A stretch of DNA of 33,980 nucleotides. Source: Fusobacterium necrogenes. GTDB taxonomy: Bacteria > Fusobacteriota > Fusobacteriia > Fusobacteriales > Fusobacteriaceae. Every line of letters begins with the position of its first letter. The stretch's first letter is position 1. The notes under the pieces were generated by a model that saw nothing but the letters and a program-made list of their open reading frames with translations, had not been told where the DNA came from and did no database searches. This document shows positions 1-33,980 of this stretch, one piece after another. The translations under genes were made by a program, and so were the position numbers. The stretch spans positions 1 to 33,980 of the forward strand of contig NZ_UGGU01000001.1 of NCBI RefSeq assembly GCF_900450765.1, written 5' to 3'.

Positions 1-14
1 TGAATCTTCAAGCC

Positions 15-467
15 ATGAACAAACGAATTAAAAGTTTAGAAGAAAAATTAAGAAAAAATAAAATCAAAAAATCAAGCTTTAGTCAAGCAGAAAGAAAAAA
101 AAGAGCTAGAAATTTGATAATACTAGGAGCTAATTTTGAAATACTGGGATACGAAAAAGAAGAAAATACTGTTATATTAGGTTTTTTAAAAGAAAATATA
201 AATAAAATCAAGCAAAATAGAGAACTGTATAAAGAAATAGGACAATCCATTTTAGATGAGAGAGCTAAAACTAGACTTGAAAACAAATTAGAACATACTT
301 CTCCAGAAACAAGACAAGTCAATTCTGATGAAATAAAAGAACTTTTAATACTATCTAAAAAATATAATATATCAGAATATATAAAAAAAGAGTTTAATAA
401 AACTCTCTGGGAAAAACTTACTTATAAAGAATTTATTTTAATTAAAAAAAATTTTACTGGAATATAA
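15..467 (+). CDS. TraD-like mobilisation accessory protein
   Basis: This 150-residue, strongly basic and charged protein probably assists the relaxase at oriT. A segment near residues 24-45 (KKRARNLIILGANFEILGY) resembles the short conserved core of TraC/TraD-type accessory proteins encoded beside MobQ/Ti-type relaxases; the family call is from memory. The rest is predicted helical with coiled-coil character. No ribosome binding site is visible in the window. The frame is open to the left edge, and if the sequence is circular an ATG spanning 33980-2 would add five residues, so the 5' end is uncertain. On a circle it would follow mobA, the transglycosylase and the tnpB element on the same strand, which fits a mobilisation operon split by the insertion. 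A perfect hairpin terminator overlaps its stop codon. Confidence 0.55.
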   Translation: MNKRIKSLEEKLRKNKIKKSSFSQAERKKRARNLIILGANFEILGYEKEENTVILGFLKENINKIKQNRELYKEIGQSILDERAKTRLENKLEHTSPETRQVNSDEIKELLILSKKYNISEYIKKEFNKTLWEKLTYKEFILIKKNFTGI

Positions 468-1594: not shown

Positions 1595-1611
1595 CAATCT
1601 TCTATTGAATA

Positions 1612-1707
1612 TTTCTTTTGATTATCCTGTTCGCTATTCTACGAACATATCTTCTCAATGAGCTTTCTTTTGATTATCCTGTTCGTGGCTCTACGAACAT
1701 ATCTTCT
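1612..1707 (-). repeat. Two 44-nt tandem repeats of the RNA antitoxin
   Basis: Copies at 1664-1707 and 1612-1655 match at 40 of 44 positions. All four differences fall in or next to the hairpin loop, so both GTTCG/CGAAC stems are kept. The 8-nt spacers differ (GCTCATTG and TATTCAAT on the minus strand). With only two units joined by such short variable spacers, this is not a CRISPR array. Confidence 0.9.
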
Positions 1708-11644: not shown

Positions 11645-12946
11645 TTATTTTCCTAATGTAAGTTGTAAATTATCTTTAGCCAGTTTGTTAGCCCAAGAAT
11701 TATTAGAGGTTGTAGCCACTTCTAAATTATTTCCCATATCTTTAGCTAGTTTTTTAGCCCAGACATTTTCTTTTTCAAGTTCATTTAATTTATCCTCTAA
11801 ATATTTAAAAGATTCAATATCACGTGTACCTACGTCTATTCTACCTTTATCAATAACTTCATTGTTTTTTATATGTTCAAAATAAAATTTATAAATACCT
11901 TCATTTTTTTGATAAAGTTCATTATCTAATTTTTTTATTTCTTCTAACAAGTCTTTAGTTAATTTTAAATCAGCGTAACTTTTAAGACCATTACTACGTT
12001 CGTTAAACTCAATACGCCAATATTCATTATCAGTTGTTTTATTAATAATCTTTTCTTTAGAGTGTTCAAGATATCTGCTATATAATAGTTCACTTGCTTT
12101 TTCAGCTTCTATACTTGCTTTAAAAAGTTCATTAAAATCATTTTTTAAAACTTTGATCCAACTTTGTAAATAAGCTCCGTGATTATCAATATGTGTAGCT
12201 TCTAATTTGATACCTAATTTTCCTTGTAACATCATTGCTCCAAGTTCAGCTACAAGCTCTTCTCTGGCATATTTTTCACTTCCAAAGTTATTTGTTATAT
12301 CTCTATTTAGTTCCTTTCCAGTTGAATGTACCATTTCATGTAATACAGTTGCTAGATAACTTTCTTGACTTTTGAAAGTCTCTTTTAATGGAATTAGGAT
12401 TTTATCTTTACTTGGAGTATAAAAAGCATCTGGTTGTGCAGTTTCAATAATAGGTACTTTAGAACTTTTTATAAAATTTTCTGCAATCTTTAAAGTTTCT
12501 GTTTTTTCTAAAGGTTTTAAATTAAGTGGTGGTATTCCTTCTACATCATTAGCATTGAAAACTCTAAAATAATTAGGAATAGGTGTATCTAATTTTACTT
12601 TAACTTTTTTTTCTACTCCTAATTCTGGATTTTTCTGCTTTTCCTCTTTTTCAAAAATCCATTTTTCTAATATTATACTTTTTGCTCCTGGTTTTATTTT
12701 CCACCCTTCATCTTGTGCTTGTTTAAATGTAACCCAACGAGGATCGTTATATTCATTTATAAGAGAAGCGTGGAAAGTTTTTAAAACATTTCTGCCTTTA
12801 TATGTTACATCTGATGAAGGATTTTTTGGTAATAGCATTTCTGGTGTCCAACCTTTTTTCCATTCAAGACCTTGTTTTTCCATTTTTTTGATGATTTCTT
12901 CAACTAATTTTTTTCTATCATTCATTAAAATATCAAGAGCTTTCAT
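11645..12946 (-). CDS. ardC: ArdC-like antirestriction / zincin protein
   Basis: This 433-residue protein starts at the ATG at 12946, 8 bp after AAAGGAG. The N-terminal domain (about 1-125) is the ArdC ssDNA-binding type (WKKGWTPEMLLPKNP, YKGRNVLKT, WVTFKQAQDEGWKIKPGAKS). A zinc-metallopeptidase domain follows with HEMVH near residue 200 and the downstream helix REELVAELGAMML. ArdC proteins protect incoming DNA from restriction; ArdC of pSa is known to enter recipients during conjugation. The C-terminus ends in SWANKLAKDNLQLTLGK, and a partial earlier copy (VWAKKLAKDMG) lies about 25 residues before it. This tail is shared with both plasmid toxins. The gene is third in a topB-small ORF-ardC operon. 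Confidence 0.9.
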   Translation of the reverse strand: MKALDILMNDRKKLVEEIIKKMEKQGLEWKKGWTPEMLLPKNPSSDVTYKGRNVLKTFHASLINEYNDPRWVTFKQAQDEGWKIKPGAKSIILEKWIFEKEEKQKNPELGVEKKVKVKLDTPIPNYFRVFNANDVEGIPPLNLKPLEKTETLKIAENFIKSSKVPIIETAQPDAFYTPSKDKILIPLKETFKSQESYLATVLHEMVHSTGKELNRDITNNFGSEKYAREELVAELGAMMLQGKLGIKLEATHIDNHGAYLQSWIKVLKNDFNELFKASIEAEKASELLYSRYLEHSKEKIINKTTDNEYWRIEFNERSNGLKSYADLKLTKDLLEEIKKLDNELYQKNEGIYKFYFEHIKNNEVIDKGRIDVGTRDIESFKYLEDKLNELEKENVWAKKLAKDMGNNLEVATTSNNSWANKLAKDNLQLTLGK

Positions 12947-12951
12947 TAAAA

Positions 12952-13089
12952 TCACTCCTTTACATTACCATTTTCATCTGCTTCTAGTTCTTCATTATCT
13001 ATGATAATTTCCTTGTCATGCTCACGAGATACCCCTATTCTTGCTAAATATTCCTCTATAGTTTCATTATTTTGTTTATCCCATTTCAT
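12952..13089 (-). CDS. Small 45-residue acidic protein between topB and ardC
   Basis: This frame starts MKWDKQNNETIEEYLARIGV and ends ENGNVKE. It has an AAGGAG site 8 bp upstream and stops 5 bp before the ardC start. It is acidic and mostly helical. The gene's own ribosome site, and ardC's site embedded in its last codons, support real translation and coupling. The family is not recognised; it could be a chaperone or inhibitor of ArdC. Confidence 0.6.
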   Translation of the reverse strand: MKWDKQNNETIEEYLARIGVSREHDKEIIIDNEELEADENGNVKE

Positions 13090-20679: not shown

Positions 20680-23100
20680 CTATATTTTTAAAAACTCTTG
20701 AGTAAATTCATCTGGAGAGTTAGTATGTCTTTTTATTTCATCTGCTTTTGCTAATTCTTCTGCTCTTGAACTGGCAACAAGTTTTAAAGTATTTTTTCCT
20801 AGAGCTAGAGAAAACTTCCTAGCAAATCCTGTTGATGTTTTTATAAAATAATCTTTTTTTTCTGTTGCATTAGCTATCAAATTTATTTCTTCTTCATTTA
20901 AAGCAAATTTTTTATAAGTTTCTATGTAAGTTTCAGTTTTTGCATTAGGGTTAGCTAAAAATATTTTAGTTTTACAAGCGTCATTTACTGCTGTAAATAA
21001 TGGAGAATTTAATATATCCCCTAATTCTTGAGTTGCAAATACAACACTTGTATTTTTTCTTCTTAAAACCTTTAGCCATTCCCTTATTTTATCTGCAAAT
21101 ACTGGGTTATCAAAAAACGCCCAACACTCATCAAGTACCAATAATGTAGGATCTCCATTTAGTTGTATTTCTATTTTATGGAATAAGTACATTAAAAGAG
21201 GAACAAGAGCTTTTTTATTATTTAATATTTGATTCATTTCAAATACATTCCAGTTTGAATTTTGGAGTTCTTCATTATTAGAATCAAAATATTTTCCTAG
21301 TGGACCAGTTATTAAATATGGACTTAATGCTTCTTTTAATTCTGGATCTGCTAGATATGTTGAAAATGTTGTTAAAGTCCTATATTCTACAGGCGAATCA
21401 GAAACAAGCTCTAATGCTTCCCATACTTTCTCTTTTTGACTCGGAGTCAGAACTTTATTTTCTGCACTGAATATATCTAATATCCAGTCAAATGCCCATT
21501 CAAGCTCTATATTTCTTCTTATTTTTTCTTTTTCTTCTTCTTCCTCTGATAGTATTTCATCATTTAATTTACCTAGTCCTTTGAATGGTTGAAATGAGAT
21601 ATTATCTATTCCTAAATCATAGAATATTCCTCCATTAGCGTATGTAGCTACTTTTGACGACGCCCCCTTATCAAATATGAATACTCTTGCTTTTTCATAT
21701 TTCATAAATTGAGTATATAACATAGCTAAAAATACTGATTTTCCGCTTCCAGTAGGCCCTACTACTGCTGTATGTCCAACATCATTTACATGTAAATTTA
21801 GTAAAAATGGATTTGTATTATCTGTTTCAGTAAAAATTAATGCAGGAGCTTTTAAATGTTTATTAATATATTCCCCATTCCATATTGATGTGATAGGGAA
21901 TAAATGAATAAATTGTAAAGTATTTAATACTGGCTCTCTTTGATTTGAAAATATATTACCTGGTAAACTTCCAAACCAAGCTTCTTTACAATTAACTGTT
22001 TCATTTATTATTATAAAACCTTTATTTTCTAATACTTTTTCTAAATATTCTACTTTTTTATCTAATTCTGTTTTATTTTTTGAAGATAAAAAGATAGTAG
22101 AGTTATATAAACCTTGTGTTAAATAATCTCCTTGAGTTAAAGTTATTTGCGATTCTATTTCATTAGCCCTTCTAACTGCGTCAAGATTGATCTTTCCACT
22201 TTCTGGATCTCTACCAGATAATTCATTAAATACCCTTGTAAAAAAGCTCAATTTCCCTTGTAATGTACTTTTGTAAGCTTTTTCCATTTTCTTTAAAGCT
22301 TGTTGTTTACTTAAAAAGATAAATCTAGTAACCCATCTGTATTCAAAAGGCAAATTATTGAGTTCATCTAATAAGCAAGGCTCTGTAAAATTAGGCAGTC
22401 CTATTATTGAAATAGCTTTTATATAAGTCTTTCCTAATTTTAGATCTTCCAAATTTCTAAGAAGTGGAGTATCACATAAATAGTTAGCTAAAGCGAATGG
22501 AACTACTGGCATATTTACTTTCGTTTCTTTTTCACTTACACAAGAATGTAAGTAAGTTAGCGTTTCTTCTGGTGTAAGCTCTCTTGCTTCTAAAAAAATC
22601 TCTTTAAAAAGGTTAAAAAATCTATTGAATGATTTAATAAAATCCTCTAATGAAGTATCTGAGATAATTTCTTCCAATTTCTTTTCTATAAAAAATTCAG
22701 ACATTTTATTTTCTATATCTCTTGGTACTAAATAAGTTAAAGTTACATAATATTCATTGATATAATATTCTGCATTTTGACCTATAAAATGTTCTTTTCT
22801 TTCTTCTTCAATAATTCTTCCTGCTAAAGTTTTAAAGTTAGATTCTATATATTTATCAGCTTTTTTTCTTCTGACTTCTACATGAATAGTCCAGTTTTCC
22901 TCAATTCTTTTCATTAAGTTATTTGATCTTTCTACCAGATTTTTTATTTGCTCCTCTGTATAAGAAATTAAATCAAATCCCCTATATTTAAAAGTTTTTT
23001 GATATGATCCATTTTTATTTAGTACTATTCCATTTTCTTTTAGAACTAACCAACTAACCTCATCAGATACTTTAGCCCTTTTTTTAAATTCACTAATCAT
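20680..23100 (-). CDS. trbE: TrbE/VirB4-like T4SS ATPase
   Basis: This 806-residue cytoplasmic ATPase powers substrate transfer and pilus assembly. The N-terminal part (about 1-400) is the VirB4/TrbE-specific domain. The RecA-like domain carries Walker A AVVGPTGSGKSVF (about residue 450), Walker B TLLVLDECWAFF (about 655), and the downstream RKNTSVVFATQELGDI motif typical of VirB4. The length is right for a complete protein. It starts 10 bp after trbD, and a palindrome and trbJ follow. Confidence 0.95.
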   Translation of the reverse strand: MISEFKKRAKVSDEVSWLVLKENGIVLNKNGSYQKTFKYRGFDLISYTEEQIKNLVERSNNLMKRIEENWTIHVEVRRKKADKYIESNFKTLAGRIIEEERKEHFIGQNAEYYINEYYVTLTYLVPRDIENKMSEFFIEKKLEEIISDTSLEDFIKSFNRFFNLFKEIFLEARELTPEETLTYLHSCVSEKETKVNMPVVPFALANYLCDTPLLRNLEDLKLGKTYIKAISIIGLPNFTEPCLLDELNNLPFEYRWVTRFIFLSKQQALKKMEKAYKSTLQGKLSFFTRVFNELSGRDPESGKINLDAVRRANEIESQITLTQGDYLTQGLYNSTIFLSSKNKTELDKKVEYLEKVLENKGFIIINETVNCKEAWFGSLPGNIFSNQREPVLNTLQFIHLFPITSIWNGEYINKHLKAPALIFTETDNTNPFLLNLHVNDVGHTAVVGPTGSGKSVFLAMLYTQFMKYEKARVFIFDKGASSKVATYANGGIFYDLGIDNISFQPFKGLGKLNDEILSEEEEEKEKIRRNIELEWAFDWILDIFSAENKVLTPSQKEKVWEALELVSDSPVEYRTLTTFSTYLADPELKEALSPYLITGPLGKYFDSNNEELQNSNWNVFEMNQILNNKKALVPLLMYLFHKIEIQLNGDPTLLVLDECWAFFDNPVFADKIREWLKVLRRKNTSVVFATQELGDILNSPLFTAVNDACKTKIFLANPNAKTETYIETYKKFALNEEEINLIANATEKKDYFIKTSTGFARKFSLALGKNTLKLVASSRAEELAKADEIKRHTNSPDEFTQEFLKI

Positions 23101-23110
23101 TAAAACACCT

Positions 23111-23374
23111 CTATCCCTCGTGATAATACTCTTTTTCTTTTATATATTTCTTGAGAAAAATAGTTAAAACTAATGGATCTTTTTTGGTAAAAAAATATAT
23201 CATAAAATGTAAAATTAATGAAAATAAAAGCATTATAACACTTTCAAATATAACTACAAAACATAGTCCTAATGCAGCATTTAAAATAAAAGCTTCTCTG
23301 CTTATTCCCATTATTGTTTGTGGTTTTAATAATGTTTGACAAGTAGGTACTTTTAAATTTTCAGTTTTTTTCAT
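23111..23374 (-). CDS. trbD: TrbD/VirB3-like inner-membrane protein
   Basis: This 87-residue protein begins with a short cytoplasmic N-terminus containing the VirB3-type KVPTCQTLLKPQTIMGISREAF. A long hydrophobic hairpin follows (about 30-63), and it ends with a basic tail (IFLKKYIKEK). It partners with TrbE in the inner-membrane complex. It overlaps trbB by 4 bp and is followed by trbE after 10 bp. Confidence 0.8.
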   Translation of the reverse strand: MKKTENLKVPTCQTLLKPQTIMGISREAFILNAALGLCFVVIFESVIMLLFSLILHFMIYFFTKKDPLVLTIFLKKYIKEKEYYHEG

Positions 23375-24324
23375 TCCTTAACCTCCCTTATAATATATTT
23401 TCCTTCATCAAATCCTAAAACTTCTTTAATTTCAACAACTTTTCTTTCTCCATTAACTCTTTTAAGAACTACAACTAAGTTAATAGCTTTTCCTATCAAT
23501 TTTTGTTGTTTATCTACTGATTTTCTCTGATTATATTGCTCAAGTTGTTCTAAAGCACCTTCTGTTGAATCAGAATGAATTGTTGATACTCCACCACCAT
23601 GTCCAGAGTTCCAAGCTGTTAAAAGATCTAAAGAAGTAGCTCCTCTAATTTCTCCTACTACTATTCTGTCTGGCCTTAATCTCATTGTCGAATAAAATAA
23701 TTCTTCCATTGAAGTATACATAGAAGTTTTTAATGATATTTTATTAGGACATAAACTTCTAATTTCTTTTGTATCTTCTAAAATAACTAGCCTATCTTTC
23801 TTAGGAATAGCACCTATACAAGCATTGGCGAATGTTGTTTTTCCTGTAGAAGTTCCCCCAACAATTAGGATATTTTTATAATCATTTATAGCTTTTTCTA
23901 TTACTCCTTTTTGAAATTCTGTCAGAGATCCCATTTTTACATAATCATCTAAAGTAAAGATTAATATAGATTTTTTTCTTATAGTAAAAATAGGATTGTC
24001 AGCATTCGGAGGAATTACAGATTCAAATCTGAATCCTGTATCTGGTAGTTCAGCCGACATTCTAGGATTTTCTTTATCTACTTTAGCTTCCATAAAAGTA
24101 GCAACAGTATTTATTATTTTCATAGCTTCTGCATTTTCAAGTGTTATTCCTGTAAAGTACATTCCTTTAGTTAAGGAATCAACCCATACTGTTTTATCAT
24201 CATTTAGCATAATTTCTATAATATCTTCATCTTCAAAATACGCATTAATTTTTTCTCCTAAAGAACTTTTCAAAATAGCAAATATTCTATCACTATAAAT
24301 ATTTTTTCTATCTATACTATTCAT
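23371..24324 (-). CDS. trbB: TrbB/VirB11-like secretion ATPase
   Basis: This 317-residue traffic ATPase forms a hexamer at the inner face of the channel. It has Walker A LIVGGTSTGKTTFAN (about 156-170), the Asp box RLVILEDTKEIR, Walker B MRLRPDRIVVGEIRG, and the His box TAWNSGHGGGVSTIHSDS. These are all in the order and spacing of VirB11/TrbB. The start has an AGAAGGAAAT site inside the end of the upstream gene, overlapping by 8 bp. Confidence 0.95.
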   Translation of the reverse strand: MNSIDRKNIYSDRIFAILKSSLGEKINAYFEDEDIIEIMLNDDKTVWVDSLTKGMYFTGITLENAEAMKIINTVATFMEAKVDKENPRMSAELPDTGFRFESVIPPNADNPIFTIRKKSILIFTLDDYVKMGSLTEFQKGVIEKAINDYKNILIVGGTSTGKTTFANACIGAIPKKDRLVILEDTKEIRSLCPNKISLKTSMYTSMEELFYSTMRLRPDRIVVGEIRGATSLDLLTAWNSGHGGGVSTIHSDSTEGALEQLEQYNQRKSVDKQQKLIGKAINLVVVLKRVNGERKVVEIKEVLGFDEGKYIIREVKE

Positions 24325-24631
24325 TATTTCCTTCTATCTTTGAATTTTCTTGAAATTCTTTTATATTTTTATCTTGCAAATTTTTATATCTAATTATTTC
24401 TTCCTTTAGGATCTTTGATATATTTTCTTGAAAGTCTTTATTATCTTTATTTTCATCTAAAATTTGAAGTAACTCATCATCACTCATTATCTCTGTAAAA
24501 ACTTTACTAAACATATTAAATACGTATTTTTTCTTTTCTTCTTTCATTTTTCTTAATCTTTCTAATAATTGAGCTTCATTTTCTGAAAATGATGATAAAT
24601 TCTTTTTTCTTCTTATTTTCTTTTCTTGCAT
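24317..24631 (-). CDS. Small helical protein between traG and trbB
   Basis: This 104-residue, highly charged, all-helical protein has no membrane segment (RRKKNLSSFSENEAQLLERLRKMKEEKKK... DDELLQILDENKDNKDFQ). It overlaps trbB by 8 bp and sits 17 bp after traG, so it is co-expressed with the two cytoplasmic ATPases. A role as a coupling-protein or VirB11 cofactor is plausible from position, but the family is not recognised. Confidence 0.6.
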   Translation of the reverse strand: MQEKKIRRKKNLSSFSENEAQLLERLRKMKEEKKKYVFNMFSKVFTEIMSDDELLQILDENKDNKDFQENISKILKEEIIRYKNLQDKNIKEFQENSKIEGNNE

Positions 24632-24648
24632 AATTTATAATCTCCTTT

Positions 24649-26391
24649 TTATTTACTCGGCTTTATTTTTGCTTTATCCTTAAAATAAGGATTGTTAAAA
24701 TAAGTTACTTTTATTCCTCTATAAGTAGGTTTTCCTTTAAAAAATATAAGATTTTTTTTATCAGAATATCTCATTACTTCTTCTGGAGTAAGTAATTCCC
24801 TAGCTATTTTATTTTCTGATATATTACCTGTATCTAATTTTAATGCTTTAAAACTTTTATTTTGAGTTTTTAGAGTTCTTTTTCCTAATAATGCTGAAAT
24901 TAACTCAGCTGTAGCTTTATCTGTAGCTTGTGGAGTATAAAAAACTGCTGTAGAACAGTTCTCTAAAATCATATTTTTATCTCCATAAGCTTGTCTAAGT
25001 TGATTAATTCCTTGAGCAATTACTACTGCTTTCATTCCATAACCTGCTATATATGCAAGTGCTTTTTCTAGTAAAGGAATTTTACCAAATGCAGGGAACT
25101 CATCAAGCATAAGAAGTAACTTATGTTTATGTGGCATTTTATCTGGATCTTCCATTTTAGGACATAAAATTCCTATTATTTGAGAGATTAAAATACGAAT
25201 TAATGGAGATAAAACAGATATTGACACAGCTTCTATAATTACATATAAATCTACTGGTGTTTTATCATTCATTAAATCATTTATCTTAAAATCAACTGCT
25301 GTTGTATTTTTCCTAATAATAGGATCTTTATATAGAGTTATTGCTGTAATACATGATGAAATAATACCAGAACTTTCTCTTGGATCTTTATTTATTATTT
25401 CTGCGGCTGTTCTTGATACAATAGGGTGTGTACCTGGATTTATTCCTGCATTTTGTGATGAATCATAAATTGTATTAAAAAATTCTGGATCATCACTATG
25501 ATTAAATTTCATTAGCTCTAAAATTCTCTCTAGTATTGGTTTACTTGGATCGTTAAAAAAGTCCATTACATGTCCTAAACTTGCTACTTCTCCTTTTTTA
25601 GTTTTTTCATAACAAACATGAAGAATTAAAGCTACTAATAAGGCACTTGCTTGTGTTACCCAATGATCTCTTGCTTTTCCTTCTCCTGGATCAGTAAGAA
25701 TGTCTGCTATAATTTGAGCGTCTACATATTCATATTTAGTTCTTAATCTAATTTGTGCTAATGGGTTATATGAACTTGAATTTTCATCATGTGGAGCAAA
25801 TTTTATAATTTTATGCTTTAAAATTTTCTCTCTAAAACCTGCTGTTTTTACATAGTTTTCTTTTTTCAAGTCTAAAACTATTGATGAAGATTGCCAGTTT
25901 AAAAGAGTAGGAATAATAACTCCTACCCCTTTACCTGCTCTTGTAGGTGCTATCAATGCTATATGAGTATTAGAATTATCTATTACTTTATATTCCTTGA
26001 ATAAACCTTTAGCTAAACCTAGTATTACTCCGTCAGTATATTTATTTTTTAAAACTCCCAATAAATCTAAGTCATCTAAATTAGCCCAACGTGCTGTTCC
26101 ATAACTATTATCTTTTTGTCTTTTAAGAATAATTCCTCCAGTTATTCCAATTAAAATTAAAAATGTTCCTAACATTAATCTAAATGCTTTATTTATAAGA
26201 AAATTTGTAGAATATTCTTTATAATAAGGTAATAAAAAGAATGGATTTTTTATATCTTCCATTGTTATACCATTTGCTTTATAATAAATATAAGTATTTC
26301 CTGTATATAAAGTCATTAGAATTAAAATTGCTAGTACAAGAAAAAATATTAATATTGTTTTTTTTATCTTTCTTTTCATTTTTATTTTCAT
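24649..26391 (-). CDS. traG: TraG/VirD4-like coupling protein
   Basis: This 580-residue type IV coupling protein recruits the relaxosome and protein substrates to the T4SS. It has two N-terminal membrane helices (about 10-30 and 68-87). Walker A IALIAPTRAGKGVGVIIPTLL (about 142-162), the VirD4 segment SSIVLDLKKENY, and Walker B LLMLDEFPAFGKI (about 425-437) follow. The AGYGMKAVVIAQGINQL motif comes next. It lies 11 bp downstream of trbI. If the shared C-terminal tail of the toxins and ArdC is a transfer signal, this is the protein that should read it. Confidence 0.95.
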   Translation of the reverse strand: MKIKMKRKIKKTILIFFLVLAILILMTLYTGNTYIYYKANGITMEDIKNPFFLLPYYKEYSTNFLINKAFRLMLGTFLILIGITGGIILKRQKDNSYGTARWANLDDLDLLGVLKNKYTDGVILGLAKGLFKEYKVIDNSNTHIALIAPTRAGKGVGVIIPTLLNWQSSSIVLDLKKENYVKTAGFREKILKHKIIKFAPHDENSSSYNPLAQIRLRTKYEYVDAQIIADILTDPGEGKARDHWVTQASALLVALILHVCYEKTKKGEVASLGHVMDFFNDPSKPILERILELMKFNHSDDPEFFNTIYDSSQNAGINPGTHPIVSRTAAEIINKDPRESSGIISSCITAITLYKDPIIRKNTTAVDFKINDLMNDKTPVDLYVIIEAVSISVLSPLIRILISQIIGILCPKMEDPDKMPHKHKLLLMLDEFPAFGKIPLLEKALAYIAGYGMKAVVIAQGINQLRQAYGDKNMILENCSTAVFYTPQATDKATAELISALLGKRTLKTQNKSFKALKLDTGNISENKIARELLTPEEVMRYSDKKNLIFFKGKPTYRGIKVTYFNNPYFKDKAKIKPSK

Positions 26392-29704: not shown

Positions 29705-32035
29705 ATGGCTAATTATTACTTAAATATGAGTTATGGTAAAGTGGGAAAAACTAATGCCCATTTTGACTACATTACAGCTAATGGTAAATATACTGGAAAA
29801 GAAAAAGAACTAGTATATGAATCTCATAATATGCCAAACTGGGTAACGTCTGCTAAAGAATTTTGGGAAATAGCTGATAATAACGAAAGAGTTAATGGAA
29901 GGACTTATAGAGAAGTAAGAATATCATTACCAGAAGAACTAACTAAAGAAGAAAATATAGAACTTTTAAATCAATTTTTAAAAGAAAATTTTTCTGGACA
30001 TTATTATAGTGTTGTCATACACGATAAAGAAACACAACCAGGTTTTGAATATGTAGAAAAACATAAAAATATACACGCTCATATTATGTTTTGCCCTCGT
30101 GTTATAGATAATATTGAAAGAAAAGATCCAAGTAAATATTTTAAAAAATCAAATTCTAAAAATCCAGAACGTGGAGGAGCGGCTAAAGATCCAAAATGGA
30201 ACGAAGTAGAAACTCTTTTAAAATTAAGAAAAGACTGGGAATTATTACAAAATCAGCATTTAGAATTACATAATATAAATGCTCGGGTTAGTTGTGAAAC
30301 ATTGGAAAAACAAAGACAACAAGCTTTAGAAAAAGGCGATTTTGATAAGTACGAACAACTTAATCGTTTACCAGTACATATAAATAGTATTACACTTAAT
30401 AAAATAAATAAAACTGAATACGAAAAAGAACTAATCAAAGAATTTTTAGCTAATAGAGAAATTAAGTCAATCAAAGATAAAATTTATCAAGAAGTTCTTA
30501 ATGAAAGAGCTAAAAATAAAGAAACTATTAATGTATTTGACGCTTCTATTTCTAAGAAAGAAAAAGAAAATGCTTACAACAAATTAATGGCTAAGAAAAA
30601 TAAAATTGATAGTAATAATTTATTAATTAGTCAACTTCAAAATATTAATATAAAAAATGAAGTTTATTCTAAATTAATTCCTGGATATAGGGAAAAAGTA
30701 AATGAATTAAATAATATTATTAAAGAACAAGAACTTTTCACACAAGAAGAGTTTAATTTACTTGCACAAAAATATAATAATATAAAAGCTATGGAATCAA
30801 CTATTGATCCTAAATTATTTGAAAAAGAAAAAGAGAATATAATCAATGATATTCATAAAAATATTGAGAAATTAGAAAAAGAAAATACTGTACTAAATGA
30901 TGAAATTCAACAAATATTTATAAATAATTCTAAAAATAAAGAGTTCATTAAAGAGTTAGAAAATAATTATCTAAATATTGACGTTAAAAAATCTATAAAT
31001 AATATTATTTTAGCAACTAAAGATAAGGAAAATATCCAAAAGAAACTTGATTTAATCGAACTTCAATTAAGTAATTCAAGAAAGACTACATTAAATATTT
31101 TATCTAAGAAAAAATATATTCCTCTTGAAAAAGAAATTAAGAAACTTAAAGAAGAATTACTAGCAAAAGAAAGTGTAGGAGATTCTAAACAAATTGAAAT
31201 TCTAAAATCAATTATTAATAAGAAAGAAAAAGAACTTAAAGATATTGAAATTAGCTGTACTAAAGATATGGATAAATTTATTCGTATCAAAGAATCTTTT
31301 GAAAAGAAACTACATAATAATAAAGCTGAACTTAATATTAAATTACAAGCAATTAATAACTCTATTGAAAATAGTAAGAAAGAAATCTTATTATCAAATA
31401 AAGAAGTTAGAACTCATCTAAGTAATACTATTAATTCTAATAAAGAATTACTTGAGCTTAATAAAGAAAAACTTGAGAAATTGAAATTTCTCAAAAAGAC
31501 ATTAAATAAAGATATTAAAGAATTAGAAGTAATAGCTTACTTATCATTAACTAAAGGAAAATATGGAAGATTACAAGATAAGTTCTCTAAAAATATGGAT
31601 AGAATAGATCAAATAAATGTTGAATTAATCAAACTAAAAGAAAATAAATTATTTAATATGTTCTCCATTAGAAAGCTTGAGAAAGAAAAAACTTTACTTG
31701 AAGAAGAATCAAGCAGAATTTCTAAAGAGTTTAAAGAATTAAAAGCTTCTATTTCTACAGATGATTTAACTAATGAGATATTGAGAATAAAAACAGCTTT
31801 AGCCGAAAAAGAAAATAATATAGATAAGCAGATCCAAGATATTTTAGATGAAAATAAAGAATTACATTCAATAAATAATATTTGTTATAACTTATACGAT
31901 AATTACAAAGACTTGGAACAAAAACCTATTTATGAAAAATCTTTAGATTTATTTACTGGAAATACTACAACTAAAAATACTGGATCTTGGAACATACAAA
32001 TAGAAAATGATAATGAAAAAGTAATCAGAATGTAG
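29705..32035 (+). CDS. mobA: MobA/MobL family relaxase
   Basis: This 776-residue relaxase nicks oriT and pilots the DNA. The N-terminal domain has the catalytic-Tyr context KTNAHFDYITANGKY (Tyr22). It continues with YREVRISLPEEL and the metal-binding histidine motif HKNIHAHIMFCPR near residues 120-132, as in MobQ (MobA/MobL) relaxases. From about residue 230 to 740 the protein is long Lys/Glu-rich coiled coil with no primase or helicase domain. It ends in SWNIQIENDNEKVIRM, which loosely matches the tail of the plasmid toxins and ArdC. It is first in the plus-strand operon and starts after GGGGGTG. No truncation is seen. Confidence 0.93.
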   Translation: MANYYLNMSYGKVGKTNAHFDYITANGKYTGKEKELVYESHNMPNWVTSAKEFWEIADNNERVNGRTYREVRISLPEELTKEENIELLNQFLKENFSGHYYSVVIHDKETQPGFEYVEKHKNIHAHIMFCPRVIDNIERKDPSKYFKKSNSKNPERGGAAKDPKWNEVETLLKLRKDWELLQNQHLELHNINARVSCETLEKQRQQALEKGDFDKYEQLNRLPVHINSITLNKINKTEYEKELIKEFLANREIKSIKDKIYQEVLNERAKNKETINVFDASISKKEKENAYNKLMAKKNKIDSNNLLISQLQNINIKNEVYSKLIPGYREKVNELNNIIKEQELFTQEEFNLLAQKYNNIKAMESTIDPKLFEKEKENIINDIHKNIEKLEKENTVLNDEIQQIFINNSKNKEFIKELENNYLNIDVKKSINNIILATKDKENIQKKLDLIELQLSNSRKTTLNILSKKKYIPLEKEIKKLKEELLAKESVGDSKQIEILKSIINKKEKELKDIEISCTKDMDKFIRIKESFEKKLHNNKAELNIKLQAINNSIENSKKEILLSNKEVRTHLSNTINSNKELLELNKEKLEKLKFLKKTLNKDIKELEVIAYLSLTKGKYGRLQDKFSKNMDRIDQINVELIKLKENKLFNMFSIRKLEKEKTLLEEESSRISKEFKELKASISTDDLTNEILRIKTALAEKENNIDKQIQDILDENKELHSINNICYNLYDNYKDLEQKPIYEKSLDLFTGNTTTKNTGSWNIQIENDNEKVIRM

Positions 32036-32047
32036 GAGGAATGAAAA

Positions 32048-32593
32048 ATGAAAAAAATATTATTTTTTATAATTTTTAATTGCTTATTTAAAGTTTATGC
32101 AGACGTTGATTTGAAGGAATACTACCAACAAAAAATAATAGATCCAAATAAAGCTATTACAGCTTATAATGATGTTCATAGATTTTCTAAAGAATTTAAT
32201 GTTGATGAAAAGCTCATAACTGCCATTATTGAAGTAGAAAGTAACTTTTCTAATGAAATTAAGAGCAAAAAAGGTGCTATAGGTTTAATGCAAATTATGC
32301 CAGGAACAGCAGAATTATTAAATATAGATCCTAATGATTTAACTCAAAATATCTATGGTGGAATTAAGTATTTTAAATTTTTATTAGAGAAAAATAATAA
32401 TTATATTCCTTTTGCACTTGCTGCATATAATGCAGGACAAGGGAACATAGTCAAATATGATAGTATTCCACCATTTCCAGAAACTCATTCTTATATTGAA
32501 GAAGTTTTAAATATATATAATAATTTAACTGGAATAAATAATACATTCTTTTCTAACGAATTTAGTAATACTAATTTTAATTGGGAGGCTTAG
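32048..32593 (+). CDS. Lytic transglycosylase (VirB1-like)
   Basis: This 181-residue SLT-fold enzyme opens peptidoglycan for the secretion channel. It has a signal peptide MKKILFFIIFNCLFKVYA. The catalytic Glu64 is in IIEVESNFSNEI, followed by KKGAIGLMQIMPGTAELL, then NIYGGIKYFKFLLEK and FALAAYNAGQGNI, all in family order. It starts 12 bp after mobA with an AGGAGGAAT site. It is complete and ends just before the left side of the tnpB element. In most systems the VirB1 gene is in the T4SS operon; here it travels with the relaxase. Confidence 0.92.
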   Translation: MKKILFFIIFNCLFKVYADVDLKEYYQQKIIDPNKAITAYNDVHRFSKEFNVDEKLITAIIEVESNFSNEIKSKKGAIGLMQIMPGTAELLNIDPNDLTQNIYGGIKYFKFLLEKNNNYIPFALAAYNAGQGNIVKYDSIPPFPETHSYIEEVLNIYNNLTGINNTFFSNEFSNTNFNWEA

Positions 32594-32684
32594 AGCTGTT
32601 AGAAAAAATATGGAATTTCATATAAAATTATATAAATGATTTATAGTGTAATGATATTGAGGTAATAAAAGGAGTTAATGGAAG

Positions 32685-33818
32685 ATGATACTAGCGAAGA
32701 AAGTTAGACTTTATCCAACTAAAGAGCAAGAACAAAAATTATGGCAATCTATAGGAACTGCGAGATTTATCTATAACTATACTATCGCAAAACAAGAAGA
32801 AAACTATAAAAATGGTGGTAAATTTATTAGCGATGGGGTCATTAGAAAAGAATTAACTCAACTAAAAAAATCTGAGCTAATTTGGTTAAATGAAGTATCA
32901 AATAATGTAACTAAACAAGCAGTAAAAGATGCGTGTAATTCCTATAAAAGATTTTTTAAAGGTTTAGCTAATAGACCAAAATTTAAAAGCAAAAAGAAAA
33001 GTAAACCTAGTTTTTACAATGACCCTATAAAATTAAAAATTAAAGGTAGAAAAGTTTTGATTGAAAAAGTAGGTTGGATAAACATAAGAGAACAAATACC
33101 TATTGGAGTTAAATACAACAACCCTAGAATTACCTATGATAATAAATATTGGTATATATCTGTTGGAGTAGAAGTTGAGAAAAAACAAGAAGAACTGACA
33201 GATATTTCATTAGGAATAGATTTAGGATTAAAAGATTTAGCTATTTGTTCAGATGGACAAGTTTTTAAAAATATCAACAAAACCAAAAAAGTTAAAAAAT
33301 TAGAAAAAAGATTAAAACAAAAACAAAAACAAATTAGTAGAAAATATGAGATGAATAAAATAAAAAAAGAGGGAGGTGTAAGTTGTCAATTTATAAAAAC
33401 TAAAAATATAGAAAAGTTGGAAAATACAACAAGACTGATACATAGAAAATTAAGCAATATTAGAAATAACTATCTTCATCAAGTTACAACAAATATAGTG
33501 AAAACCAAACCATATAGAATTGTAATAGAAGATTTGAATGTTTCTGGAATGTTGAAGAATAAACATCTATCAGATTCAGTAAGAAGACAGTGTTTTTATA
33601 AGTTTAGAGAGTATATAACATATAAGTCAGAGTTATATGGAATAAAACTAGTAATAGCAGATAGATTTTATCCATCATCAAAAACTTGTAGTCATTGTGG
33701 TTCTATAAAGAAAGATTTAAAACTAAAAGATAGAGTTTATAGTTGTTCACATTGTGGAACAGTAATAGATAGAGATTATAATGCTTCTCTGAATTTATCT
33801 ATGTATAAATTAGCATAA
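32685..33818 (+). CDS. tnpB: TnpB RNA-guided nuclease of an IS605-type element
   Basis: This 377-residue TnpB has an N-terminal helix-turn-helix/wedge region (KKVRLYPTKEQEQKLWQSIG, FIYNYTIAKQ). RuvC motif I is GIDLGLKDLA (Asp179), motif II is RIVIEDLNVSG (Glu282), and the zinc ribbon is TCSHCGS...YSCSHCGT (Cys335, 338, 354, 357). Motif III DRDYNAS contains Asp364. All catalytic residues are present, so the nuclease is probably active. TnpB proteins cut DNA guided by an omega RNA made from the element's right end, which helps retain the element at its site. The start follows AAGGAG with 10-bp spacing. Confidence 0.95.
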   Translation: MILAKKVRLYPTKEQEQKLWQSIGTARFIYNYTIAKQEENYKNGGKFISDGVIRKELTQLKKSELIWLNEVSNNVTKQAVKDACNSYKRFFKGLANRPKFKSKKKSKPSFYNDPIKLKIKGRKVLIEKVGWINIREQIPIGVKYNNPRITYDNKYWYISVGVEVEKKQEELTDISLGIDLGLKDLAICSDGQVFKNINKTKKVKKLEKRLKQKQKQISRKYEMNKIKKEGGVSCQFIKTKNIEKLENTTRLIHRKLSNIRNNYLHQVTTNIVKTKPYRIVIEDLNVSGMLKNKHLSDSVRRQCFYKFREYITYKSELYGIKLVIADRFYPSSKTCSHCGSIKKDLKLKDRVYSCSHCGTVIDRDYNASLNLSMYKLA

Positions 33819-33962
33819 TTTCACAAACAAGAAAATGCTAATGTGTAGGACGCGTTGTATCCGAATTTAAGCCTTTGGAGAGTTATATCAAACGAAAGTA
33901 GCTTAGGCAAAATCGGACTTGTAGAAGAAGGAAATAAACAAATTTCTATATTTTTATAGATT
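33819..33962 (+). ncRNA. Probable omega RNA (reRNA) of the tnpB element
   Basis: The non-coding right end downstream of tnpB contains a stretch (GCCTTTGGAGAG near 33869, then GAAAGTAGCTTAGGC near 33894) of the kind conserved after tnpB genes. A hairpin near the element end follows. By analogy with known TnpB systems this strand gives the scaffold RNA, with the guide copied from DNA just past the right end. The boundaries are approximate. Confidence 0.6.
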
Positions 33963-33980
33963 TTTGGCAACGGGAATAAA

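What the first reader, a model, noticed from the sequence alone, without database searches (positions are those of the whole stretch)
32600..33980. tnpB-only element with intact nuclease and omega RNA splitting a mobilisation operon
All RuvC and zinc-ribbon residues are present but tnpA is absent. The insertion lies between the transglycosylase and, on a circle, the TraD-like gene, whose own ribosome site is missing in the window. The element may now drive or shut off that gene. The guide would be copied from DNA at the left edge of this window if the right end is at 33980.
Basis: inference. Interest (0 to 1): 0.5.

Follow-up and report, generated by a model that had tools for sequence, protein, structure and literature searches.

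The report
TnpB element inside a ribosome-binding site
A small mobile element carrying an RNA-guided DNA cutter has landed between a plasmid gene's ribosome-binding site and its start codon, and most of its relatives in other bacteria and phages sit in the same kind of place.

Summary
Confirmed and sharpened. The element is 32589-33973: an intact TnpB, no tnpA, and a RAGATH-18 guide-RNA scaffold. That makes it an IS607-type tnpB-only element. Its right end (CAACGG, 33973) is shared by relatives. The next bases, 33974-33980 joined to 1, restore the traD start codon across the contig ends, which supports a circle. Related contigs carry the uninterrupted transglycosylase-traD junction with a Shine-Dalgarno (SD). 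Here that SD (GGGAGG, 32583-32588) is stranded 1.4 kb upstream of traD.

The wider result is a family pattern. Of 122 non-redundant copies with a well-scoring guide-RNA end, 92 end 3-15 nt before a start codon, against 13.5% of GG sites in the same loci. Left flanks are SD-like (GAGG in 41 of 52). The published target motif of this TnpB clade (AGGAG/GAGGG) therefore looks like the Shine-Dalgarno itself. Insertion weakens predicted SD pairing in 35 of 35 reconstructed sites. Yet one copy sits before a single-copy fabD, so translation must survive. I found no paper stating this link.

The element is a new member of a known kind. Its effect on traD, and any guide activity, are inferred.

The parts
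29705..32035 (+). MobA/MobL-type relaxase, first gene of the split operon
   Evidence: PF03389 E 3.5e-24; 66% identical and in the same order in L238
32048..32593 (+). Lytic transglycosylase (SLT). Plasmid-derived part ends at 32588; the last codon and stop come from the element, replacing a tail GINESSSHEQTN with A
   Evidence: PF01464 E 2.9e-24; read-through of the joined flanks
32583..32588 (+). GGGAGG: traD's original Shine-Dalgarno, left flank of the element and presumed target-adjacent motif (joined with base 33974 it reads GAGGG)
   Evidence: Empty-site reconstruction; left-flank consensus of 52 copies; published TAMs AGGAG/GAGGG (PMC11061315, section 6)
32589..33973 (+). tnpB-only IS607-type element, 1385 bp; exchange in the GG at 32587-32588 / 33972-33973
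   Evidence: Left end GG+5 nt+AGCTGTTA and right end CAACGG shared with relatives
32685..33818 (+). TnpB RNA-guided nuclease, 377 aa, RuvC triad D179/E282/D364 intact
   Evidence: dN/dS 0.11-0.19 against five copies of G011
33813..33973 (+). reRNA (omega RNA) scaffold up to the right end
   Evidence: Model R1 match, 155.9 bits (the window sequence was one of the 15 used to build R1)
33872..33933 (+). RAGATH-18 motif
   Evidence: RF03064, 72.4 bits, E 7.3e-13
33974..33980 (+). First 7 nt of the predicted guide (GAATAAA); start uncertain by about 1 nt
   Evidence: Right-end boundary and published guide position (PMC11061315); inference
1..13 (+). Rest of the predicted 20-nt guide: traD codons 1-5
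   Evidence: Same; follows from circularity; inference
1..467 (+). TraD-like gene; its ATG is base 33980 plus bases 1-2
   Evidence: PF06412 E 3e-5; relatives L238-L240

Best explanation
This is a transposase-less IS607-type element that inserted at a GG inside the Shine-Dalgarno of traD, in the sense direction of a relaxase-transglycosylase-traD operon on a conjugative plasmid. Its TnpB clade recognises SD-like DNA (AGGAG/GAGGG) as target-adjacent motif, so its natural target is the translation-initiation site of genes. The guide at the right end is the traD initiation region (about GAATAAATGAATCTTCAAGC). TnpB with this guide should cut copies of the plasmid that lack the element (SD followed by guide). 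It should spare the occupied copy, where CAACGG precedes the guide. That retains or spreads the element among sister plasmids. Transcription of tnpB, reRNA and traD probably comes through from the operon. traD translation is weakened but probably not abolished. Shown by sequence: anatomy, boundaries, empty sites, SD displacement, family-wide pattern. Inferred: RNA production, cutting, drive, level of traD.
For: RAGATH-18 at gathering score; nuclease residues intact. Right end identical in phage and chromosomal copies. Empty SLT/traD junctions with SD in L238, L239 and L240. Exact empty sites for two further copies of this lineage in G011: fabD (SD present in 11 of 12 genus genomes, absent only in occupied G011) and kdsD (11 of 12 likewise). 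Right ends 3-15 nt before a start codon: 92 of 122 copies at 90 bits or more, ATG alone 77 of 122; null 3989 and 2262 of 29,536 GG sites. Left flank GAGG in 41 of 52 against 8.7%, GGAGG 31 of 52 against 2.4%. Reverse-strand control 1 of 52. TnpB dN/dS 0.11-0.26 among tnpA-less copies. TAMs measured for 23 systems of this clade (PMC11061315).
Against: No RNA, cleavage or read data. 30 of 122 well-scoring copies have no qualifying start codon after the right end, and only 10 of 28 with weaker matches do. One G011 copy (L065) is not before a gene. The window's exact TAM was not measured. The copy has no transposase in its genome, so it may be immobile. Copies are related, so the binomial P (2.6e-54) overstates independence, although sites were de-duplicated.
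Confidence: 0.78

Rival explanations
1. The Shine-Dalgarno preference is passive: IS607 exchanges at any GG, coding insertions are lost by selection, and in AT-rich genomes the surviving GG sites are mostly SDs. TnpB target choice plays no part.
For: IS607 TnpA needs only a GG, with (G)GG preferred and no further motif seen (PMC6188088 passages). GG sites in the same loci are already near a start codon in 13.5% of cases and GGAGG sites in 35.5%.
Against: Observed 75% (92 of 122) against 35.5% for GGAGG sites; reverse-strand control 1 of 52; GGAGG in 31 of 52 left flanks against 2.4%. AGGAG/GAGGG was found as TAM in vitro from random libraries, which selection on insertions cannot explain. Passive loss of coding insertions may still add to the pattern.
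Confidence: 0.2
2. The insertion simply knocks out traD: a decayed, immobile insertion with no present role.
For: No tnpA in the element or genome; predicted SD pairing falls from -10.7 to -4.3 kcal/mol; the GG next to the start is mostly paired in the predicted leader fold.
Against: TnpB is intact and under purifying selection (dN/dS 0.11-0.26). A same-lineage copy sits in the same position before the single fabD of G011, a gene expected to be needed. The traD frame is intact.
Confidence: 0.2
3. A domesticated, TldR-like regulator: TnpB kept at this place to repress or tune traD through its guide.
For: Guide overlaps the traD start and the element is co-oriented with traD.
Against: TldRs are RuvC-dead (PMC13418256 passages); here the triad is intact. 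Relatives sit before unrelated genes, so there is no conserved regulatory partner.
Confidence: 0.05
4. Assembly artefact: the contig ends are unrelated and traD is not downstream of the element.
For: No read data; nothing in the calls points this way.
Against: The ends rebuild an in-frame ATG, the standard CAACGG right end and the SLT-traD order of L238-L241.
Confidence: 0.02

Closest known systems
ISFba1 and the RAGATH-18/IS607 TnpB clade (PMC11061315)
   Same: TnpB fold and RuvC triad, RAGATH-18 reRNA 3' of tnpB, AG-rich motif at the left end, guide taken from the right flank
   Different: No tnpA here. That paper reports the AGGAG/GAGGG TAM; 'start codon' and 'ribosom' do not occur in its held text, and it was not among the papers holding 'Shine-Dalgarno' with IS607 and TnpB
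IS607-family transposons (ISXfa1, PMC10711439; IS607/IS1535, PMC6188088)
   Same: GG at both ends, no target duplication, exchange at GG
   Different: Those carry the serine transposase TnpA; this copy does not
TnpB gene drive of IS605 elements in plasmids (PMC11870625)
   Same: Proposed role: cut plasmid copies that lack the element
   Different: IS200/IS605 family, another transposase; shown experimentally there, inferred here
TldR RNA-guided repressors (PMC13418256)
   Same: Derived from TnpB, use a guide RNA
   Different: Nuclease-dead and domesticated; this one keeps its nuclease residues

Membership tests
RAGATH-18/IS607 TnpB systems | RAGATH-18 RNA directly 3' of tnpB | tested here: met
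   RF03064 72.4 bits at 33872-33933, 53 nt after the tnpB stop
RAGATH-18/IS607 TnpB systems | TnpB with intact RuvC triad, closest to ISFba1 | tested here: met
   8IAZ best PDB hit, D/E/D aligned; that 8IAZ is ISFba1 TnpB is inferred from its length, the A at D371 and PMC11061315
RAGATH-18/IS607 TnpB systems | AGGAG or GAGGG next to the left end | tested here: met
   Left flank GGGAGG; joined flanks contain GAGGG. Recognition itself not tested
RAGATH-18/IS607 TnpB systems | RNA-guided cleavage of the target | not testable with these tools
   needs biochemistry
IS607 transposon (autonomous) | Serine-recombinase TnpA with N-terminal DNA-binding domain | tested here: not met
   No tnpA in the element; none over cut-off in the genome. 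Filed only as a tnpA-less derivative
IS607 transposon (autonomous) | GG at both ends, no target-site duplication | tested here: met
   Joined flanks restore an uninterrupted SD-ATG without duplication; same for fabD and kdsD in G011
IS200/IS605 | Y1 transposase TnpA | not tested
   No separate search for Y1 TnpA; the 96 nt before tnpB hold no such gene, and RAGATH-18 is reported only with IS607 TnpB
IStron | Group I intron within the element | tested here: not met
   No group I intron in the Rfam scan of the window
TldR | Inactivated RuvC | tested here: not met
   D179/E282/D364 present

The most novel reading that the evidence does not exclude
RAGATH-18 IS607 elements are translation-site parasites: their TnpB motif has converged on the Shine-Dalgarno. 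Each guide is therefore a host gene's initiation region, and each insertion makes one RNA that is guide RNA upstream and mRNA downstream. TnpB loading and ribosome loading then compete on it, so TnpB levels set expression of the captured gene (here plasmid traD), and precise excision restores the SD like a switch.
Probability: 0.2. Interest if true: 0.78.

Novelty: new member of a known kind. Interest (0 to 1): 0.55.

Why it matters
TnpB is the ancestor of Cas12, and how its target motif fits the element's life is an open question. If the motif of this large clade is the Shine-Dalgarno, these elements have a site before nearly every gene, avoid coding sequence and insert in the sense direction. 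Host promoters would then supply the guide RNA. It would also mean that many genes in Firmicutes and Fusobacteriota genomes are translated from a transposon end instead of their own SD (PMC11061315 counts 10,258 RAGATH-18/TnpB loci; how many lie before genes is extrapolated from my sample). That is directly testable with reporters and insertion mapping.

Tried and rejected
Promoter or terminator in the element: 7 promoter-like sites against 10.0 expected, 0 terminators; rejected as evidence. Self-target of the guide in the genome: one site, C3:1793960, with 2 mismatches, preceded by AAAGAGAGA; no matching motif, so unlikely to be cut. Relatives of the whole region in the plasmid collection: only distant TnpB matches and no place covering 80% of the query, none for TraD; TraD in genome contigs: none. 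Close relatives of SLT in the genus: none besides the window. Group I intron/IStron: none in Rfam. First right-end finder (regular expression) missed 53 of 174 loci; replaced by covariance model R1, which gave a like result (74 of 113 against 102 of 150). Left ends were found for 58 of 113; 3 with several candidates (L096, L123, L115) and 3 judged spurious by eye (L084, L127, L086) were dropped. The left-end finder requires a GG 4-7 nt before the end motif, but not GAGG. In one search one row (L221) was dropped for a short flank, and rows L185 and L231 (partial model matches) were left out. L066, L067 and L077 were not given to R1. The 90-bit cut is mine. In one search the L240 TraD row picked a wrong upstream ATG; the true start is read. 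The co-direction test (34 of 52 with a same-strand ORF ending near the left end) is crude, and its antisense count of 0 should carry little weight.

Full report
WHAT IS THERE. The window is the whole contig C1 (33,980 bp) of a 2.0-Mb, 5-contig genome. The right end of the contig carries a TnpB gene (32685-33818) followed by a RAGATH-18 RNA at 33872-33933 (RF03064, 72.4 bits). PMC11061315 (outline, sections 5, 6, 12 and passages read) reports that RAGATH-18 co-occurs only with IS607-type TnpB, forms the guide-RNA scaffold, and that 23 such TnpBs cut DNA next to 5'-AGGAG or 5'-GAGGG. The window TnpB is closest among solved structures to 8IAZ, which I take to be ISFba1 TnpB of that paper. The catalytic residues align (D179, E282, D364). 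No tnpA is present: 96 nt separate the left end from tnpB, and no IS607 transposase passes the NCBIfam cut-off in the genome.

BOUNDARIES. The right end ...TTTTTGGCAACGG is shared by phage and chromosomal relatives and ends at 33973. The left end is GG, 5 nt, then AGCTGTTA; relatives have GG, 4-6 nt, AACWGTTR or close variants. Exchange at GG without duplication is the known IS607 mode (PMC6188088 passages; PMC10711439 section 25). The element is therefore 32589-33973, with uncertainty of 1-2 bases inside the GG.

INSERTION SITE. The right flank is GAATAA followed by A(33980)TG(1-2), the in-frame start of a 155-aa TraD-like protein. The left flank is AATTGGGAGG, the end of the transglycosylase gene. 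Joined, they read AATTGGGAGG/GAATAAATG: an SD, a short spacer and a start codon, with the transglycosylase frame running 12 further residues into traD. Uninterrupted versions exist. In L238 (G013) relaxase, transglycosylase and traD follow one another (66, 70 and 54% identity), and the traD start overlaps the transglycosylase end behind GGTGAGG. L239 and L240 show the same overlap with GGAGG and GGAG, though there the relaxase is on the other strand. So the element split an SD from its start codon, changed the transglycosylase tail to A-stop, and broke the gene overlap.

A FAMILY PATTERN. I built a covariance model of the guide-RNA scaffold from 15 sequences and searched 171 sources. Of 163 right ends typed into the script, 1 was dropped for a short flank and 150 stayed after removing near-identical flanks. 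A start codon opening a frame of at least 50 codons (or 30 if cut by the locus end) lies 3-15 nt after the right end in 102 of 150 (ATG in 84). Among the 122 with 90 bits or more it is 92 (ATG 77), with distances peaking at 6-8 nt; among the other 28 it is 10 (ATG 7). For other GG sites in the same loci, both strands, it is 3989 of 29,536 (ATG 2262); for GGAGG sites 173 of 488 (ATG 137). An earlier regular-expression pass on largely the same loci gave 74 of 113 against 3290 of 24,044. For 52 copies with both ends found, the left flank holds GAGG in 41, GGAGG in 31 and AGGAG in 14, against 8.7%, 2.4% and 1.1% of 11,200 GG sites. A reverse-strand start left of the element occurs in 1 of 52. Downstream genes are diverse and mostly matched from their first residues: fabD, kdsD, glycerate kinase, lactate dehydrogenase, serine dehydratase, cyanophycin synthetase and others (20 of the 73 proteins listed were scanned, 2 of them without a family).

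EFFECT ON TRANSLATION. Predicted pairing with the anti-SD (ACCUCCUUA) in the 20 nt before the start falls in 35 of 35 reconstructed sites, median -10.6 to -3.3 kcal/mol; random 20-mers give -2.1. For traD it falls from -10.7 to -4.3. Two sister copies in G011 give exact empty sites from congeners. fabD is single-copy in all 12 genus genomes. Its SD is present in 11 (-11.3 to -12.6) and displaced in G011 (-3.0); G006 reads AATTAATAGAAGGGGG-TAGT-ATG where G011 has AATTAATAGAAGGGGG/element/TATT-ATG. kdsD behaves alike (-6.4 to -8.4 against -4.0). Because fabD is expected to be needed, the occupied form must still be translated at some level. That is inference from gene content, not a measurement.

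HOW IT PROBABLY WORKS. TnpB plus a reRNA whose guide is the traD initiation region should cut plasmid copies that lack the element, where GAGG/GAGGG precedes the guide sequence. It should spare the occupied copy, where CAACGG precedes it. Such cutting works as a gene drive for IS605 elements in plasmids (PMC11870625 passages). With up to 3 mismatches the guide has one other site in this genome, with 2 mismatches and no such motif before it. Purifying selection on TnpB among this copy and five transposase-less copies of G011 (dN/dS 0.11-0.26), where no IS607 transposase passes the cut-off, fits a role that persists without transposition. Co-orientation with the operon (34 of 52 copies have a same-strand ORF ending near the left end) would let host transcription supply tnpB and guide.

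IS IT KNOWN. The element type is known. That its TAM and insertion site are the Shine-Dalgarno was not stated in any paper I found. Searches IS607+Shine-Dalgarno+TnpB, IS607+ribosome binding site+TnpB, IS607+start codon+TnpB, TnpB+Shine-Dalgarno+insertion sequence and IStron+ribosome binding site listed no paper that does so by title, abstract start or the passages I read. PMC11061315 speaks of 'AG-rich' TAMs at the left end and has no occurrence of 'start codon' or 'ribosom'. Only the open-licence library was searched; subscription papers and most preprints were not, and the 2017 RAGATH paper is not held.

VERDICT. The surprising part is the clade-wide match between TnpB target motif, insertion site and Shine-Dalgarno.

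Noticed in passing
L214, L159, L133, L140, L143, L181, L193, L179 (interval between left end and tnpB): In RAGATH-18 elements lacking a full tnpA, an antisense ORF of about 50-60 aa encoding a ribbon-helix-helix-like protein sits in tnpA's place, in phage and chromosomal copies; three of them tested match RHH_3 (PF12651, E 1e-16 to 5e-19). A possible small regulator of the element.
   Followed up: partly
window 1600-1704 (-): Two tandem 6A RNAs (RF02925, 63.8 and 72.3 bits), an RNA family for which I recall no known function, on the plasmid.
   Followed up: no
window 11645-12955 and 20680-26391 (-): ArdC-type anti-restriction protein, a VirB4-like ATPase and a VirD4/TraG-like coupling protein: the plasmid looks conjugative, not only mobilisable.
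   Followed up: no
L068, L069: Frames starting like TnpA (MEFISIEEFAKK...) are cut short by internal deletion and run on to a tnpA-tail remnant before tnpB, showing how tnpB-only copies can arise.
   Followed up: no
L239, L240, L241: In three relatives the MobL relaxase is divergent from the transglycosylase-traD pair instead of upstream in the same operon.
   Followed up: no
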